In this document: piece after piece, positions 21,198 through 28,334 of the stretch
Layout of the letters: each line of letters starts with the position of its first letter
Numbering within the stretch: the first letter of the stretch is position 1
From: Rhodothermales bacterium
GTDB taxonomy: Bacteria > Bacteroidota > Rhodothermia > Rhodothermales > UBA10348
Assembly (NCBI GenBank): GCA_024711125.1
Contig: JANJTM010000036.1
Location: 1 to 35,000, forward strand
Length of the DNA: 35,000 nt
Direction of reading: 5' to 3'
Notes under the pieces: model-generated
Databases searched by the model: none
Told to the model about the DNA's origin: nothing
Seen by the model: only the letters and a program-made list of their open reading frames with translations
Translations under genes and position numbers: made by a program

Positions 21198-21294
21198 GTT
21201 TCGGCCCGAGGGCGGGCATCCGAGGGCCGGGCAAGGGGGTATTCGGTCGCCCGGGTGTACCTTGGGCAGATCGCACCGTACCGAGGGAATTGCC

Positions 21295-23178
21295 ATGTTC
21301 GCACGAATTCCTGTCCTGGTCCGTTGGAGCGGGGTAGTCCTCTGCCTGCTCTCCGCCCGCCCGGTCGCCGCGCAGCCGCTCTGGCATACCGTGACCGGCA
21401 AAGCGGTGGCGGAATGCGCTTCCGAAGCCGGTGCCTCGCTTGTCCCGGTGGCCTGCGTCGTGCCCGACCTCGGCGTCGTGCGGCGCCTCCTCTCCGACGG
21501 GGTCGGCTCGGAAGTCGATCCGGGCGGGTCCGCCGGCCGGTTCGTCGTCGACCGGGTGCTGCAAAGGGCGGACGGGGGGTCGCTCGCCGCGGCCGGATCG
21601 GTCGATCCCCGGCGGCGGTTCCAGGCGACGCTGCACGGTGAACATTTTACCGCCTGGGTGCAGGACCACGGCGCGACGCACGAGGTCAGGCCGGGTGCGG
21701 GCGGGATGCACGCACTCTACCGGGTCGTGGAGGGCGCGGTTCGGCTCGTCGAACCGCCGGCTGTGCCGGATGTCGGTGCACTGTTCGACGGTGACCCTGC
21801 GTCGTCGTCGGAGCCGGCTGCGGAGGGTTCGACGGCCTTCCTTTCGCCGTCCGCCGCGGAGGTAACCATCCTCGTCGCGTACACGACCGCCGTCAAGAAC
21901 CGGCTGGGCACGAGCGGACTCGCAAGCCGCGTCCAGTCGCTCCAGGACTGGCTCAACCAGGCATTCGTCAACAGCGGGCATCCGGAAATCACGGCCCGCG
22001 TCGTCGGCACCGTCGAGACGACCTACACCCCGTCGACCAGCATGTCCACGGACGTCGACCGCCTTCTCAACCCGTCGGACGGCTTCCTGGATGATCTGCA
22101 CCCGCAGCGTGTGTCGGCCGGCGCCGACCTGCTGCACCTGCTCATCCCCGACCAGACCGATGCGTGCGGCATCGCCTACGTGCCCCACGACCTGCGACCG
22201 GACCTCGGTGTCGGCCTGTCGGCGGCGAGTTGCCCGCTCTCGACGTTTGCCCACGAGATCGGGCACAACTTCGGCATGGGCCACGACTCCTACGTATCCG
22301 CCAGCGATGCCTGGTGGCCGTGGGCGTACGGATACGTCGACCCGGATTTCCGATTCCGGACGATCATGGCCTACTCGAACCAGTGTTCGGCGGCGGGACG
22401 CACGTGCCCCGAGGTCCAGTACTTCAGCGATCCGGACCGGACGTACCAGGGCTATCCGCTCGGCATTCCGTTCGTGCAGGGCGGGCGCTCGGCCGACAAT
22501 GTCAGGGTGCTCGAGGACATGGTCGGCAACGTCGCCGACAACAGCCGGTACCTGCATCCCGCGTGCGACTGGACGCTGCGGTCCATGTCGGTCTCGCCGA
22601 ACACGCTGTCGTCGTCCACGGTCTCGAACTTCCGCGCGACGCTCGAGGCCGGTTCCGGCGGCTGCTCTCTCGAGCGCGTGCGCCTGGAATTCGCGCCCGC
22701 GGGCTCGGGGTCGTCGGCCCCTACGTATCCGGCGGGTTCGCACGAGATCACCGCGTCGGCCGGGCAACAGATCCAGCTCTCGTCGTCGTTCACCGTCAAC
22801 TCGGCGGGACTTCCGGCCGGCTCGTTCCAACCGCGCGTGTTGATCGTGCGTCGCGGATATTACTGGTATATCAACACCAACACGACCGTGACGTCCGGAG
22901 TGGCGGTGGAGCCGGACGCGGTTCTGCCGGCCGATCCCGGCCTGTCGGCGCCCTGGCCGAATCCGGCCGTGGACCGGGTGCACGTGCGCCTGCAAAGCGG
23001 CGGCGCGGCCTCCCGATCCCTCCGGATCTTCGACGCGCTCGGACGCCCGGCCCTGGCCGTCGAGGTGGCAGCCGGAGAGAACGACGTGGCAGTCGACGTC
23101 AGCGGATTGCCGAGGGGCGTGTACTTCCTGCGGGTGTCGGGCGAGGCCGGCGCGCGGGTGATCAGCGTCGTGCGGTGA
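21295..23178 (+). CDS. Secreted reprolysin-like zinc metalloprotease
   Basis: 627 residues from the ATG at 21295, preceded by GAGGGA. The signal peptide runs to ARPVAAQ. A propeptide-like region of about 180 residues follows, then the catalytic domain: EVTILVAYTTAVKNRLG at its start, HEIGHNFGMGHD with His320, Glu321, His324 and His330 (metzincin zinc site), and the Met-turn TIMAYS with Met358. This is the M12B/reprolysin-like arrangement. A beta-sandwich region follows, and the protein ends with a sorting-like domain (APWPNPAVDRVHVRL, LRIFDALGRP, LPRGVYFLRVSGE). It is probably an exported, surface-held or released endopeptidase; the target is unknown. All key zinc-site residues are intact, so it is likely active. 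Confidence 0.9.
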   Translation: MFARIPVLVRWSGVVLCLLSARPVAAQPLWHTVTGKAVAECASEAGASLVPVACVVPDLGVVRRLLSDGVGSEVDPGGSAGRFVVDRVLQRADGGSLAAAGSVDPRRRFQATLHGEHFTAWVQDHGATHEVRPGAGGMHALYRVVEGAVRLVEPPAVPDVGALFDGDPASSSEPAAEGSTAFLSPSAAEVTILVAYTTAVKNRLGTSGLASRVQSLQDWLNQAFVNSGHPEITARVVGTVETTYTPSTSMSTDVDRLLNPSDGFLDDLHPQRVSAGADLLHLLIPDQTDACGIAYVPHDLRPDLGVGLSAASCPLSTFAHEIGHNFGMGHDSYVSASDAWWPWAYGYVDPDFRFRTIMAYSNQCSAAGRTCPEVQYFSDPDRTYQGYPLGIPFVQGGRSADNVRVLEDMVGNVADNSRYLHPACDWTLRSMSVSPNTLSSSTVSNFRATLEAGSGGCSLERVRLEFAPAGSGSSAPTYPAGSHEITASAGQQIQLSSSFTVNSAGLPAGSFQPRVLIVRRGYYWYINTNTTVTSGVAVEPDAVLPADPGLSAPWPNPAVDRVHVRLQSGGAASRSLRIFDALGRPALAVEVAAGENDVAVDVSGLPRGVYFLRVSGEAGARVISVVR

Positions 23179-23301: not shown

Positions 23302-23377
23302 CTGCCCTATAGCTCAATTGGCAGAGCGCCTGACTCTGGATCAGGAGGTTTCAGGTTCGAATCCTGGTAGGGCAACC
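23302..23377 (+). tRNA. tRNA-Gln, anticodon CTG
   Basis: A full cloverleaf is visible. The acceptor stem TGCCCTA (23302-23308) pairs with TAGGGCA (23367-23373). The D stem is GCTC/GAGC. The anticodon stem CCTGA/TCAGG (23328-23332, 23340-23344) holds the loop CTCTGGA with anticodon CTG at 23335-23337. The T arm contains GGTTCGAATCC. The discriminator is A and CCA is encoded (23375-23377). A hairpin terminator follows directly. A damaged copy of the same tRNA lies at 26891-26992. Confidence 0.97.
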
Positions 23378-23381
23378 ACTC

Positions 23382-23446: not shown

Positions 23447-23519
23447 GTTCTACACATGTTCTACACGGGATGCGCAGGGAAATGCACCTGTGCGCAGGGA
23501 TTTGTAGAACATGTGTAGA
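23447..23519. repeat. 18-bp perfect inverted repeat made of TTCTACA units
   Basis: TTCTACACATGTTCTACA (23447-23464) recurs as its exact reverse complement at 23502-23519. Each arm is itself two TTCTACA (or TGTAGAA) units 11 bases apart around CATG, so there are four 7-base sites with helical spacing. The 37 bases between the arms hold a direct repeat TGCGCAGGGA (23470-23479 and 23490-23499). It lies just beyond the tRNA terminator and before an HNH gene. Its nature suggests a binding or recombination site, but no known site matches. Confidence 0.9.
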
Positions 23520-23616
23520 AACTCTGGACGACCTTACTTGCCCATGCCGGCCTTTGGGCAGGCACCAACCGACCTTCACGCGCCCTCACGGGCCGTGTCC
23601 CCGATATCCCGGCGCC

Positions 23617-23940
23617 GTGTCCAAACGTCGTGCATATCTATCAACCTCCCTGGCCAATCGACCGGTATGGGAGTCGGCTTCCACCTGTTGCGTGTGCGAG
23701 GATTGTCGCCGTCCTTTCCAGATCCATCATGGGGACGGGAACTCCGCCAACAACGACCCGGACAACCTGTTCGTACTCTGCTCGCTCTGTCATTCTCGAG
23801 CGCACCAGTATGGTGCATTCGGAAGAGACCTAACCCCCTCCCTGCTAAGGTTGCACAGGACGAAGTGGCTTGATCAGTTCACGTCGAGCGAGACGACTTC
23901 TTCGTCGATCACGTTCCAAGCGCAACCGGGTCGGGTCTGA
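23617..23940 (+). CDS. HNH endonuclease
   Basis: 107 residues from a GTG at 23617 (MSKRRAYLSTSL). The core is a typical HNH zinc-finger nuclease: paired cysteines in CCVCEDC, then FQIHHGDGNSANNDPDN with the catalytic His-His and Asn, then LFVLCSLCHSRAH with the second cysteine pair and final His. A C-terminal stretch GAFGRDLTPSLLRLHRTKWLD matches the helix that follows the nuclease motif in this family. Members nick or cut DNA and are common in mobile elements. The last ~20 residues overlap the 3' end of the opposite gene and may not be functional. The start is uncertain, and an ATG further upstream at 23470 gives a less convincing N-terminus. Confidence 0.75.
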   Translation: MSKRRAYLSTSLANRPVWESASTCCVCEDCRRPFQIHHGDGNSANNDPDNLFVLCSLCHSRAHQYGAFGRDLTPSLLRLHRTKWLDQFTSSETTSSSITFQAQPGRV

Positions 23941-24587
23941 CGCAGCGTGTACAAGGTCTCGATAACTCCGGACCTCGTGGTGCTGGTAACGGCCACCCGG
24001 CGCATCCCTTCCGACAAATCGGCGGAAAGTCCGACTCGCAGAACGGCCGCTCCGTCCACCAGCTCGGCACATCCGGTTGGCTTTCCGTCCCAGACGACAG
24101 TTCCGCGCGCCTCGCCGGACTCCCACGCCGTCCACGAGCATGCGATTCGGAATGAATCCTCGTCCCCGGGGTCCAGTCCGAGCGCCTGGATCACTCTTGC
24201 CCGGGCCCGCTCCATGATCCCGAGAACGGCCATCCGCATCCGATCGGCACTGTCGAGGTGCGCCCAGTCGGTACGTGACGATCCATCCGGCGACGGAGCC
24301 GTCGTGGGAAGTCTGGGGTCGACTCGAACCTCCCGGGTCCTCGGTACGGCGATGTGTCTCAACACCGCCGAAAAGAGGTCCAGTTCGAGCGATATCGATG
24401 TCGAATCGACTGCGTTCCGTTCACCTACGACGCACTCGGTCGACGCCCCGATACCGATGGTCACCAGACACTGGGCCGCGGCGGGTACCGAGCATGCCGG
24501 CATCCAGAGGCCGGCAATGAGCCACAGTGCGGGTCGGACCAGACCCGCTCGGGTATGCACGACGACTACAGCCAATCTGCTCCACAC
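23874..24587 (-). CDS. Secreted protein of unknown function
   Basis: 237 residues. The N-terminal hydrophobic segment (LWLIAGLWMPACSVPAAAQC) looks like a signal peptide with cleavage after AAAQ. The mature part has mixed strands and helices, including SADRMRMAVLGIMERARARVIQALG, a likely amphipathic helix. Several cysteines are present (four in the mature part), consistent with disulphides in an exported protein. I do not recognise a family. Its start overlaps the 3' end of the broken lipoprotein peptidase by about 22 bases, so the two look like a translationally coupled pair. GC content is visibly lower than that of the flanking housekeeping genes. Confidence 0.7.
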   Translation of the reverse strand: MWSRLAVVVVHTRAGLVRPALWLIAGLWMPACSVPAAAQCLVTIGIGASTECVVGERNAVDSTSISLELDLFSAVLRHIAVPRTREVRVDPRLPTTAPSPDGSSRTDWAHLDSADRMRMAVLGIMERARARVIQALGLDPGDEDSFRIACSWTAWESGEARGTVVWDGKPTGCAELVDGAAVLRVGLSADLSEGMRRVAVTSTTRSGVIETLYTLRQTRPGCAWNVIDEEVVSLDVN

Positions 24588-25693
24588 GCTATGTTCGATG
24601 TGGTCTGCGTCCCATCGCCGGATACGTGCTGGTCATTTCGATTGAGGTAGTGTTCGCCCTCGTGGGCCAGCGCCCAGGTCAGCGTGAGCCGATTTTTGGA
24701 AGGCAGCATCGGCCCTCCGGTCGGATACCACTCATCCAGGGTCTCGATGCGAATGCCGATCATGACAACTCCGCCGCTGAATGACTTGACTACTCCCATT
24801 TCGGAGGTTCTGTTCAGCATGCCATATGGAAAAATCGCATGTGTCCGGCGTCGAGTACAGACCTCGCTTTCGCGGCAATGGCAGCACACGTCGACGATCG
24901 TGCCGCTATGTCATCGAGGGCGGCAGACACACGTTCAAACGCCCATCCTGCGAACCGGGGATTCAGACCTTCGCAGAATACCCTGGCTCGATCACTTATC
25001 CACGTTCCGGGTAGGCTGCAGTCAGGCAGGGGCTCGCTGTCCGCCAGATCCACTTCCGCGTCGTTCGGCGAGGTCGGCTGACCGTACCCGGCTGTGCCGC
25101 CCCCCGCCCCCCGAGGGCGGTCCCACGTATTCCGGCATATCCGAATAGATCGTGGCGTCCCCCTCCACATGGAACACCACCCAGTCCTCGTCCGCGGTCA
25201 CGGTGATCTCATCCAGGGAGCACCCCCCGTCAAGGCCGTTGGGACAGGTGATCTCGGACTCTGATCCCTTGCCTGCCGTCGGCCGATCGTTCGCTGCCGA
25301 GCCGGGAACTGCAGCCGAGCGGTCCAACCTCCGGGCCACCCAGGTCAGCGCTTCCTCCGTCGCGGGAACCACGCACCAACCACGCCGGAGAAGATCCCCC
25401 TGTGGGGTGCGGAGCGAATGATACAGGGAAGTCGTCCGGTCAGGCGAACCCACATCGACCTGGTTCATCGGGATCGGAATGCGAACGGTGCGCCGTGCGA
25501 AGATCGCGGAACCGTCGGCGCGTGGAACCCGCATCACGAGCGAGCACGTCGCGACATGTCGAGTCCCTTTGCCGGCGGCCTCCAAGGTCGCGGGCCCATC
25601 GGACACGTGGTCACCCACGTTGGAGTCACACCCTGCGCCGATCATACATATCAGGGCAGCGATGAACGAGAGTGATCGGACGGACTGAAGCAT
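24566..25693 (-). pseudogene. Lipoprotein with an HExxH peptidase domain, broken by two frameshifts
   Basis: Reading from an ATG at 25693, the protein begins MLQSVRSLSFIAALICMIGA with lipobox Cys22. It continues in frame to about 25112, where a C-rich tract on the plus strand (25100-25112: six C, one G, six C) shifts the frame. In the next frame it reads on (GQPTSPNDAEVD...VSAALDDIAARSSTCAAIAAKAR...AGHMRFF) to an A5 run at 24830-24834, where the frame shifts back. The final part contains LTWALAHEGEHYLNRNDQH with HEGEH at 24650-24664, a candidate zinc motif. Removing one G and restoring one T (coding-strand bases) gives one continuous protein of about 375 residues. The join matches a family layout I recall from Rhodothermia: lipoprotein, glycine-rich linker, helical segment, HExxH-type domain. 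It could be a true pseudogene, phase-variable, or carry two sequencing errors. Confidence 0.75.
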
Positions 25694-25847: not shown

Positions 25848-26369
25848 TCATGACGCCGCGGCAAGCGCCTCGGCCAGATCGTCGATGAGGTCCTTCGGGT
25901 CCTCGATACCCACCGAGTAGCGGATCAGCGACTCCGGGATTCCCATCGCGGCGCGCTCTGCCGGCGTGCACTCGACGTGGCTCGTCGTCGCCGGCGGCCC
26001 GACCACCGTCTCGACCGCGCCGAGGTTGGCCGCCGGATGCGCGTACCGCAGGTTCGGAATGAACCGCCGGACCGCGTCGAACGACGGATCGGCCAGGGCG
26101 AACGAGAGCAGCCCGCCAAATCCCCGCATCTGCTGCGCCGCGACCTTGTGCCCCTTGTCTCTTGCGAGGCCGGTGTAGTGCACGGTCGCGACGGCCGGAT
26201 GGGCCTCCGGGTAGCTTGCGACCGCGAGCGCGTTCGTATTCTGCCGCTCGATCCGGAGAGTCAGGGTCTTCATGCCGCGCAGCAGCAGGTACGCCGCTTC
26301 GGGATGCAGCGACGCGCCGTGGATCTCGCGGAAACCGTAGACCTTTCGCACGAGGTCTTCCCGGCGGCA
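25848..26369 (-). pseudogene. C-terminal fragment of a cystathionine gamma-synthase/lyase-like enzyme
   Basis: About 174 residues match the C-terminal half of the PLP-dependent Cys/Met metabolism family: FREIHGASLHPEAAYLLLRGMKTLTLRIERQN, then GGLLSFAL, NLGAVETVVGPPATTSHVE and the end SLIRYSVGIEDPKDLIDDL. The normal enzyme is near 390 residues; the N-terminal half with the PLP-binding lysine is missing. Recognisable sequence stops at about CRREDLVRKVY (near 26369). The residues before that in the open frame (MCFGRSRRRQLVNRAL) do not fit the family. It cannot be catalytically active as it stands. The break next to an unrelated lower-GC gene suggests a rearrangement. Confidence 0.85.
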
Positions 26370-26423
26370 GAGGGCTCGGTTCACCAACTGCCGTCTCCGC
26401 GATCGGCCAAAACACAACAGATC

Positions 26424-26890: not shown

Positions 26891-26992
26891 TGCCCTGACT
26901 CTGGATCAGGCGGTTTCAGGTTCGACACGAGCGAGCGCAGCGAGCGACTGATGGAGGCCGCGCAGCGGCCGGAATAATCCTGGTAGGGCAAC
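26891..26992 (+). pseudogene. Degraded tRNA-Gln copy with a deletion and an insertion
   Basis: Starting with TGCCCT, it jumps to GACTCTGGATCAGG, so the rest of the acceptor 5' side and the D arm are missing. It then continues GGTTTCAGGTTCGA as in the intact tRNA with one A-to-C change. Fifty-one foreign bases (26926-26976) interrupt the T loop, and the sequence resumes ATCCTGGTAGGGCAAC. The insert contains a direct repeat CGAGCG...CGAGCG and a hairpin GGCCGC-GCA-GCGGCC. It cannot fold as a tRNA. It may be a decayed tandem tRNA copy or a remnant attachment site. Confidence 0.85.
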
Positions 26993-27083: not shown

Positions 27084-28334
27084 TCACGGCCCCAACGCCG
27101 CCGCAGGCATTACCGACACCCCGTCCGGACGCCGATAGCCATATCCGCCAGGAACGATCACGCCAAGGGCCGTGGGCGGTCCGATCCGCGACGTATCGAC
27201 TCGATCGGCGAACCGCAGCAGAGTGGCAGCGGCCTCGTCGATGTACGCGGCTCCAAGCTTGACCTCGAAGGCGGCCCAGCGTCCATCCGCTCCTTCGACG
27301 ACCGCATCGACCTCCAGCCCGGTGTTATCGCGGTACTGCAGTACACGCGCGCCTGCGGCCTGGGAGAAGATCCTCAGATCCCGGATCACCAGCGACTCGA
27401 ACAGGAAACCGGCCGTCTTGAGGTCGGAGAGCAGCCCTTGAGGCATGGCGCCCATCGCGGCCGCCGCCAGGGACGGGTCCGCGAAGTGCCTCTTTGCGGC
27501 CGATCGAAGCCGGGACCGGGATCGCAGATGGGGCGCCCACGCGGGTTGGTCCTCGACAATCATCAGTCGATCCAGGGCCTGGAGATAATCCGAAACGGTC
27601 TCGGGATGCGGCTCCACATCGGCGCCCGCTGCATCGGCCGAGATGGTGGCGACCGATGCATACGTGGCGGTGTGTCGTGCACAGGATCGCAAGACGCGCT
27701 CCACTCTGATCGGGTCTCTGTCCACGCCATCCACGCGGCGAATATCGGCGCGTCTCACTTCCTCGAGGTAGTCGCGCACATACTGATAGGCGACTTCGGC
27801 CGGCTCCGTGACGGTGGCAGGCCAGCCGCCTCGACAGATCCAGGACAGGACATCGCCAATGGGGATGGAGTGGTCGGCCGCCGCGAGCGGCTTCCCGTCA
27901 AGGACCTCCGTGAACGATATGTCTCCCGATGACCAACCTGCTTCTGAAAGCGACATGGGACGCATTCGTAGCCTTGCGATGCGTCCGGCCCCCGTGTGCC
28001 GCACGATGTCGTCCGTTGGCACCGCAGAGCCCGCCAGGATGAACTGCCCCTTCGCCTTCCGCTCGTCGATGGCGCGCCGGACGTGGTTCCAGATTCCCGG
28101 CTCGATCTGCCATTCGTCGATGAGCCGCGGAACGGCCCCGGCAAGCACGATCTCGGGCGCCACGCGCGCGGCCTGTCGGGCGCCTTCATCGGCGTCGAGC
28201 CGTACGGAGCTCGCGGCCTTCTGCAGGCCCGTCTCGGTCTTCCCGCATGCTTTCGGACCCTCGATGACCACGGCACCGGCCGACCGCAGGCGGCGGCTGA
28301 GTTCGTCGTCGACGATGCGTGGGAGATAGGCCAT
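27084..28334 (-). CDS. AAA ATPase with a DUF4143 C-terminal domain
   Basis: 416 residues. The N-terminal AAA_14 domain has Walker A GPKACGKT (26-33), Walker B-like LIDEWQ (71-76), and a sensor stretch FILAGSA (98-104). The C-terminal DUF4143 part ends with GLEVDAVVEGADGRWAAFEVKLG, a pattern (E..D...FEVK) like a PD-(D/E)XK nuclease fold. The family is widespread in bacteria and archaea, often in defence or mobile regions, with no settled function. It is cytoplasmic and looks intact. A remnant of a second copy lies just upstream, and four 23-bp repeats (28379-28470) lie between them, before this gene's ATG. Autoregulation through these is possible but unproved. Confidence 0.9.
   Translation of the reverse strand: MAYLPRIVDDELSRRLRSAGAVVIEGPKACGKTETGLQKAASSVRLDADEGARQAARVAPEIVLAGAVPRLIDEWQIEPGIWNHVRRAIDERKAKGQFILAGSAVPTDDIVRHTGAGRIARLRMRPMSLSEAGWSSGDISFTEVLDGKPLAAADHSIPIGDVLSWICRGGWPATVTEPAEVAYQYVRDYLEEVRRADIRRVDGVDRDPIRVERVLRSCARHTATYASVATISADAAGADVEPHPETVSDYLQALDRLMIVEDQPAWAPHLRSRSRLRSAAKRHFADPSLAAAAMGAMPQGLLSDLKTAGFLFESLVIRDLRIFSQAAGARVLQYRDNTGLEVDAVVEGADGRWAAFEVKLGAAYIDEAAATLLRFADRVDTSRIGPPTALGVIVPGGYGYRRPDGVSVMPAAALGP

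What the first reader, a model, noticed from the sequence alone, without database searches (positions are those of the whole stretch)
24566..25693. Lipoprotein peptidase with two compensating homopolymer frameshifts
A +1 change in a C6-G-C6 tract and a -1 change in an A5 run leave lipobox and HEGEH motif in the same frame with a shifted middle. Both sites are homopolymers, where slipped-strand changes or sequencing errors occur. The gene could switch phase, be newly dead, or be wholly intact in reality.
Basis: partly seen in the sequence, partly recalled or inferred. Interest (0 to 1): 0.62.

Follow-up and report, generated by a model that had tools for sequence, protein, structure and literature searches.

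The report
Broken lipoprotein toxin with polymorphic relatives
The finding is a real gene whose reading frame is broken twice; its relatives suggest that it belongs to a family of modular lipoprotein toxins that bacteria of one class may use against each other, and in this copy the toxin half cannot be made as one protein while the gene next to it, which may give immunity, is intact.

Summary
On the minus strand a lipoprotein start and an HEGEH end share one frame; the middle lies in another. Profiles without any window row match these three segments in order (E 1.6e-7, 3.8e-5, 1.4e-5; next best 0.37). Three related genomes carry the same domains in one frame: one gene, broken twice.

Its N-terminal lipoprotein domain occurs in 35 of 244 class genomes, joined by Gly/Asp-rich linkers to different C-terminal domains: M23, Tox-MPTase3, GH19, JAB-like, HExxH and others. 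Genes downstream sort by toxin class; stand-alone toxin domains follow several members. This is a polymorphic toxin family on a lipoprotein carrier, in anatomy like myxobacterial SitA; five paper searches showed no description. Six of 35 judged relatives are frame-broken too. Toxin decay beside a kept downstream gene is likeliest here. Sequencing error is not excluded, though 33 full ABC domains of this genome are unbroken. Phase switching is untested.

The parts
25160..25693 (-). N-terminal lipoprotein domain (signal-like start, lipobox GAGC-D, two further conserved Cys)
   Evidence: 17-row alignment, invariant lipobox Cys, C50, P75, C107, P110 in window numbering; hit by a profile without the window row, E 1.6e-7.
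25100..25132 (-). Short linker EYVGPPSGGGG
   Evidence: Sequence; relatives with a C-terminal toxin have a Gly/Asp-rich stretch at this place, by eye.
25100..25112 (-). G6-C-G6 tract (C6-G-C6 on the + strand), zone of the first frame break
   Evidence: past it the first frame runs on to 25022 without matching the family, while the homology continues in another frame.
24829..25095 (-). Front half of the C-terminal peptidase domain, in the second frame
   Evidence: E 3.8e-5 with a profile lacking the window; conserved C...A columns of the family.
24830..24834 (-). A5 run (T5 in the coding sense), zone of the second frame break
24566..24829 (-). Back half of the peptidase domain with HEGEH (24650-24664), back in the first frame
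   Evidence: E 1.4e-5 with a profile lacking the window; conserved H...H, H, N, C columns.
23874..24587 (-). Downstream gene, 237 aa from a GTG start, signal-like start, overlaps or abuts the end of the peptidase gene: candidate immunity gene
   Evidence: role inferred from position. No detectable homologue among the fetched loci (best E 0.1; E 0.37; no pair).
23303..23378 (+). tRNA-Gln(CTG)
26894..26925 (+). 32-nt partial copy of tRNA-Gln, 97% identical: possible other end of a small tRNA-linked island
   Evidence: family D1.

Best explanation
The locus is a toxin-immunity module of a polymorphic lipoprotein toxin family found, as far as sampled, in one class of Bacteroidota (probably Rhodothermia; class name recalled). 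An intact member would be exported, lipid-anchored through the lipobox Cys, and would carry behind a Gly-rich linker a C-terminal zinc metallopeptidase that acts in the envelope of a neighbouring cell; the protein encoded just downstream, with a signal-like start, would protect the owner. In this genome the toxin is broken by two indels, one at the linker and one inside the peptidase domain, so that the HExxH half cannot be joined to the anchor, while the downstream gene stays open: a spent weapon with its immunity kept, on what looks like a decaying tRNA-Gln island. Shown: the domain make-up, the family, the toxin-class-specific downstream genes in relatives, the two breaks in the assembly. 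Inferred: toxicity, delivery, target, immunity by this particular downstream gene, and that the breaks are real mutations.
For: One gene. Modular family: N-domain in 35 of 244 class genomes at E 0.001 or better, with ends M23 (E 7.7e-17, 7.2e-20, 6.9e-17), Tox-MPTase3 (5.7e-18, 2.4e-17), GH19 above cut-off in two members, DUF4329 below cut-off in one, and others. Toxin exchange: L090 and L114 of one genome are 96% identical over 187 bases from the linker into the toxin start and 45% identical in protein beyond; three genomes of one genus share the upstream gene but carry M23, GH19 and HExxH types there. Downstream genes sort by toxin class: 27 of 32 linked locus pairs within class, shuffled mean 4.1, maximum 15 in 10,000 shuffles. 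Stand-alone toxin domains follow several members; in G053 and G043 they have HLLDH for HExxH. Recurrent breaks: of 35 judged relatives 6 are frame-broken and 2 have an in-frame stop (my classification); five of the six keep a downstream gene that matches its class, two of them only at E 1e-4. Assembly: 33 full ABC_tran domains of this genome, none split. Island: tRNA repeat, truncated PLP enzyme. Fold: the peptidase model resembles zinc peptidases, weakly.
Against: No toxicity, delivery route or activity was tested. The window's downstream gene has no detected homologue, so its immunity role rests on position. No same-species genome or reads: error cannot be excluded. The middle frame lacks a GC3 excess. 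An earlier profile test with fewer rows gave E 0.2 for the middle and no hit for the N part. The best structural matches are weak (Z 5.6, rmsd 4.5; Foldseek E 0.53). Toxin class labels are partly by eye. None of 37 relative loci scanned holds a tRNA, so the island link is for the window only.
Confidence: 0.66

Rival explanations
1. The gene is intact in the living organism and one or both indels are sequencing or assembly errors in homopolymers.
For: Both breaks sit at homopolymer tracts; three relatives' break zones are also runs of six or more (L112, L116; L090). No reads were available.
Against: 33 full ABC_tran domains of the same genome are unbroken (4 further matches are partial). The window's other long ORFs, such as those of 925, 1002, 1215 and 1480 codons, are open, though they were not checked against homologues. 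Two errors in one 1.1-kb gene would be unusual at such a rate. Breaks recur in this family in genomes of different contig number, including 3 and 10.
Confidence: 0.2
2. The tracts are contingency loci: slippage in the linker or toxin switches toxin production on and off in the population while immunity stays on.
For: Breaks recur at homopolymers: G8 in the linker of L116, C6 in the linker of L112, a G run in the toxin of L090 whose length differs from its counterparts in relatives, a stretch with an A4 run in L125. Five of six frame-broken loci keep a downstream gene of their class.
Against: The sites differ between members; most runs are only 4-6 bases; L120 is not at a homopolymer and L111 is broken in more than one place; the window has two breaks. 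13 of the 27 one-frame members also have G5 or G6 runs in the linker region. No population data.
Confidence: 0.1
3. Programmed ribosomal frameshifting joins the frames.
For: The first and last parts share one frame, so two shifts of opposite sense would join them.
Against: Break positions differ among members, and 27 relatives carry N-domain, linker and C-terminal domain without any shift.
Confidence: 0.02
4. The frames are separate real genes.
For: Each frame is open for over 100 codons.
Against: Single-frame homologues and collinear profile matches.
Confidence: 0.02

Closest known systems
SitA/SitI lipoprotein toxins of myxobacteria (PMC5562445, PMC8546572; passages read)
   Same: Lipoprotein signal, conserved N-terminal domain, variable C-terminal toxin, cognate immunity gene downstream. 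SitA1-3 lie on Mx-alpha prophage units; the window gene lies on a possible tRNA island.
   Different: Other phylum; shorter N-domain (model of 206 positions, against about 375 aa); many toxins here look like envelope enzymes rather than nucleases (inferred from families); no upstream gene shared by more than 3 of 41 loci. PMC5562445 reports no SitA homologues outside Myxococcales; I compared no SitA sequence and did not look for TraAB.
Polymorphic toxin systems in general (PMC3482391; abstract and passages read)
   Same: Constant N-terminus, exchangeable C-terminal toxin, adjacent immunity, stand-alone toxin cassettes; shares Tox-MPTase3 and a weak DUF4329 (Tox-JAB-2) match.
   Different: The N-terminal lipoprotein domain is hit by no Pfam model in the proteins scanned and by no NCBIfam model in the window, G053 and G107 proteins. 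PHROGs and PADLOC were not scanned.
Zincin metallopeptidases (deuterolysin, abylysin)
   Same: HExxH and a weakly similar predicted fold.
   Different: No Pfam match and no solved structure by sequence below E 0.9.

Membership tests
Polymorphic toxin system | Conserved N-terminal domain fused to many different C-terminal domains | tested here: met
Polymorphic toxin system | Known toxin domains among the C-termini | tested here: met
   Tox-MPTase3 in L047 (same gene as L106) and L092.
Polymorphic toxin system | Toxin-class-specific gene directly downstream (immunity) | tested here: met
   For relatives: 27 of 32 linked locus pairs within class. For the window's own gene: no homologue found.
Polymorphic toxin system | Stand-alone toxin cassettes nearby | tested here: met
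   in relatives; in the window the profile hits only the broken gene.
Polymorphic toxin system | Toxicity neutralised by the immunity protein | not testable with these tools
   Needs expression tests.
SitA lipoprotein toxins | Lipobox at the N-terminus | tested here: met
   pattern only, lipidation not shown.
SitA lipoprotein toxins | Sequence homology to a SitA escort domain | not tested
   No SitA sequence was compared.
SitA lipoprotein toxins | Upstream sitB-like partner | tested here: inconclusive
   No upstream gene shared by more than 3 of 41 loci within 1.5 kb; sitB itself was not searched, and many sitA genes lack it (PMC5562445 passage).
SitA lipoprotein toxins | Delivery by TraAB outer membrane exchange | not tested
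   TraA/TraB were not searched.
Zincin metallopeptidase | HExxH motif | tested here: met
   HEGEH in the window, HELDH in intact relatives; some stand-alone copies have HLLDH or HQLDH.
Zincin metallopeptidase | Zincin fold | tested here: inconclusive
   Best Z 5.6 to deuterolysin, rmsd 4.5, 129 aligned; Foldseek E 0.53. The model is of the G043 domain, not of the broken window copy.
Phase-variable contingency gene | Tract length varies between cells or strains | not testable with these tools
   One genome per species; no reads.

The most novel reading that the evidence does not exclude
The class owns a second, independent lipoprotein-toxin system for telling kin from non-kin, comparable with myxobacterial SitA but armed largely with envelope-degrading enzymes; its toxin half is repeatedly silenced by slippage in the linker or toxin while immunity is kept, so that lineages drift between armed and immune-only states, possibly reversibly.
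Probability: 0.25. Interest if true: 0.78.

Novelty: new variant of a known kind. Interest (0 to 1): 0.55.

Why it matters
Modular lipoprotein toxins with an N-terminal carrier domain were known to me only from myxobacteria (papers read in passages). A class-wide family with its own carrier domain, its own metallopeptidase toxin and class-specific downstream genes gives another case in which to ask how surface lipoproteins reach a neighbour. The repeated loss of the toxin with the downstream gene kept makes an armed/immune-only model testable by comparing strains at one locus.

Tried and rejected
No Pfam or NCBIfam match for the window pieces or the nearest relatives. No solved structure by sequence (one unrelated-looking match at E 0.99). 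A genome-contig scan with the window pieces found no relative; with profile A2 it found one named record, DDTM01000015.1 of Bacteroidetes bacterium UBA2364, whose contig length, 6792, equals that of G053's contig. No plasmid or phage record matches the L018 protein. The N-domain model gave no convincing PDB match (best E 0.018, a ribosomal protein, rmsd 21). I tried to link the window's downstream gene to relatives' genes by hhalign and phmmer: no support. One search, an earlier independent test with fewer rows, gave E 5e-4 for the HEGEH part, 0.2 for the middle and nothing for the N part, with more rows, is the stronger test. Programmed frameshifting and separate genes were rejected (see rivals). 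An empty-site comparison of the island in relatives and a search for an integrase were not run.

Rows dropped: one search lists 50 places besides the window's. 46 are in my set of loci (L012, L018, L022, L054-L056, L087-L126); the other 4 (G125:C4:32079, G481, G486:C210, G489; open frames of 189-208 codons) were not classified. Of the 46 I judged 35: 27 in one frame (L093 and L094 begin at a contig end), 6 frame-broken, 2 with an in-frame stop. Left out: 3 decayed remnants (L096, L103, L124), 4 cut by contig ends (L099, L101, L102, L108), 2 short ones without a C-terminal domain (L122, L126), 1 with an incomplete N-domain (L121), 1 doubtful member (L104). The class labels are partly by eye from motifs and from tblastn; only M23, Tox-MPTase3 and two GH19 members pass a Pfam cut-off. 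The JAB and REase names are recalled readings.

Full report
Observation. On the minus strand of 24566-25693 the sequence reads as a lipoprotein start (ATG 25693, lipobox GAGC-D), a Gly-rich stretch at the G6-C-G6 tract (25100-25112), a middle in a second frame and an HEGEH-containing end back in the first frame after the T5/A5 run at 24830-24834.

Is it one gene? The pieces, searched with X at the breaks, gave weak matches: 8 of 148 genomes at E 0.01 or better, the own genome included. Of the seven others, two (G107, G053) are related on reading, the rest are not. G053 spans middle and HExxH in one frame. A profile search of 114 genomes of the order found G053, G043, G029 and G107 besides the own genome (5 of 114). 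In G053, G043 and G029 lipobox, Gly-rich linker, middle and HELDH lie in one open frame of 443, 427 and 415 codons. In G107 the frame breaks just before the motif. Profiles without any window row then matched the three window segments in order, with nothing else in the window better than E 0.37. The window gene is therefore one gene broken twice.

What family? The peptidase domain is rare: 5 of 394 genomes in a phylum sample, the own genome included. The N-terminal domain is not: 15 of 244 class genomes with a five-row profile, and 35 of 244 genomes and 19 of 89 genera with a 17-row profile (the weakest, G060 at E 7e-4, is doubtful). In a phylum sample 17 of 394 genomes match at E 1e-4, all of them in the same class. 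I gathered 46 relative loci and read them. After a Gly/Asp-rich linker the proteins end in different domains: Peptidase_M23, Tox-MPTase3, GH19-like, JAB/DUF4329-like, a weak SprT-like match, the HExxH type of the window and several without a Pfam match. Stand-alone toxin domains follow several members. In G053 and G043 the stand-alone copy has HLLDH in place of HExxH.

Toxin exchange is visible. Two loci of genome G069 (L090, L114) share 96% DNA identity over 187 bases from the linker into the toxin start; beyond that the proteins are 45% identical. Three genomes of one genus (L116, L120, L125 from G048, G095, G107) share the upstream gene but carry M23, GH19 and HExxH ends. All three are frame-broken, which is striking and unexplained.

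Immunity. I took the ORFs just downstream of members with a labelled toxin class (91 ORFs, 32 loci with the window) and compared them all against all. Of 32 linked locus pairs 27 join the same toxin class; shuffled labels gave 4.1 on average and at most 15 in 10,000. By eye, the linked downstream proteins of the M23, GH19, JAB and HExxH classes begin with signal-like stretches, those of the REase-like class do not, which fits envelope against cytoplasmic targets. The window's downstream gene (23874-24587) has a signal-like start and overlaps or abuts the broken gene, but matches none of the others.

Frame breaks. Of 35 relatives that could be judged 27 are in one frame, 6 are frame-broken between N-domain and toxin end (L090, L111, L112, L116, L120, L125) and 2 have an in-frame stop (L089, L117). 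Break zones lie at a G8 run in the linker (L116), a C6 run in the linker (L112), a G run in the toxin whose length differs from its counterparts in relatives (L090) and a stretch with an A4 run (L125). L120 is not at a homopolymer and L111 is broken in more than one place. Five of the six keep a downstream gene that matches their class, L112 and L120 only at E 1e-4; L125's did not match. 13 of the 27 one-frame members also have G5 or G6 runs in the linker region. The pattern fits indels at hotspots in genes whose toxin is no longer needed; reversible switching is possible but unshown.

Assembly quality. In the own genome (3.79 Mb, 81 contigs, 99.3% complete) 33 full ABC_tran domains are each in one open frame; 4 further matches are partial, two of them in one 1002-codon ORF of the window that I take for UvrA. 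The window's other long ORFs are open, but I did not check them against homologues. This speaks against a generally error-rich assembly and cannot clear these two tracts.

Setting. The gene lies between tRNA-Gln (23303-23378) and a 32-nt, 97% copy of part of it (26894-26925), in a stretch of GC 0.62-0.67 (23-27 kb) against 0.63-0.72 elsewhere in the window, beside a PLP enzyme of which only the C-terminal half remains (profile positions 214-380 of 381). This looks like a small decaying island; I did not search it for an integrase. None of 37 relative loci scanned holds a tRNA.

Structure. The peptidase domain of G043 (A7, unchanged translations) was modelled at pLDDT 79, pTM 0.81. The top matches in the second look are zinc peptidases with weak scores (1eb6 Z 5.6, rmsd 4.5, 129 aligned; 4jiu Z 5.5, rmsd 3.9, 92 aligned); Foldseek's best E is 0.53. 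The N-domain model is moderate (pLDDT 70, pTM 0.52; four strands and a helix in the core) without a convincing match.

Literature. Searches gave the SitA papers and the polymorphic toxin survey, of which I read passages; in the listings I saw nothing on such a family in Rhodothermales or Bacteroidota. The library holds open-licence papers only. The record that matches G053 is filed under unclassified Bacteroidota Order II; equating this with Rhodothermales is from memory.

Verdict. A broken member of a modular lipoprotein toxin family that I could not find described. The breaks themselves are ordinary; the family is the interesting part.

Noticed in passing
L116, L120, L125 (G048, G095, G107): Same upstream gene (opposite strand) in three genomes of one genus, each followed by the N-domain with a different toxin type, and all three toxins frame-broken.
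   Followed up: partly
L033 1498-2718 (-): A window-type HExxH domain behind a Gly-rich linker, with a different N-terminal part and an in-frame stop between them.
   Followed up: no
L005/L012, L013, L014: Stand-alone HExxH-type domains with a signal-like start carry HLLDH or HQLDH and alternate with copies of one downstream gene family.
   Followed up: partly
window 25848-26417 (-): Only the C-terminal half of a Cys/Met-metabolism PLP enzyme remains.
   Followed up: partly
window 23448-23465 and 23503-23520: Perfect 18-nt inverted repeat just downstream of tRNA-Gln.
   Followed up: no
window 23470-23940 (+): ORF with an HNH-like stretch (CEDCRRPFQIHHGDGNSANNDPDNLFVLC) beside the tRNA; family not tested.
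   Followed up: no
window 27084-28334 (-): AAA_14 plus DUF4143 ATPase at the island's far side.
   Followed up: no
window 21262-23178 (+): Secreted metallopeptidase-like ORF with HEIGHNFGMGH and a C-terminal sorting-like tail; family not tested.
   Followed up: no
A6 alignment: 13 of 17 N-domains have Asp or Glu directly after the lipobox Cys; its role in sorting in this class is unknown to me.
   Followed up: no
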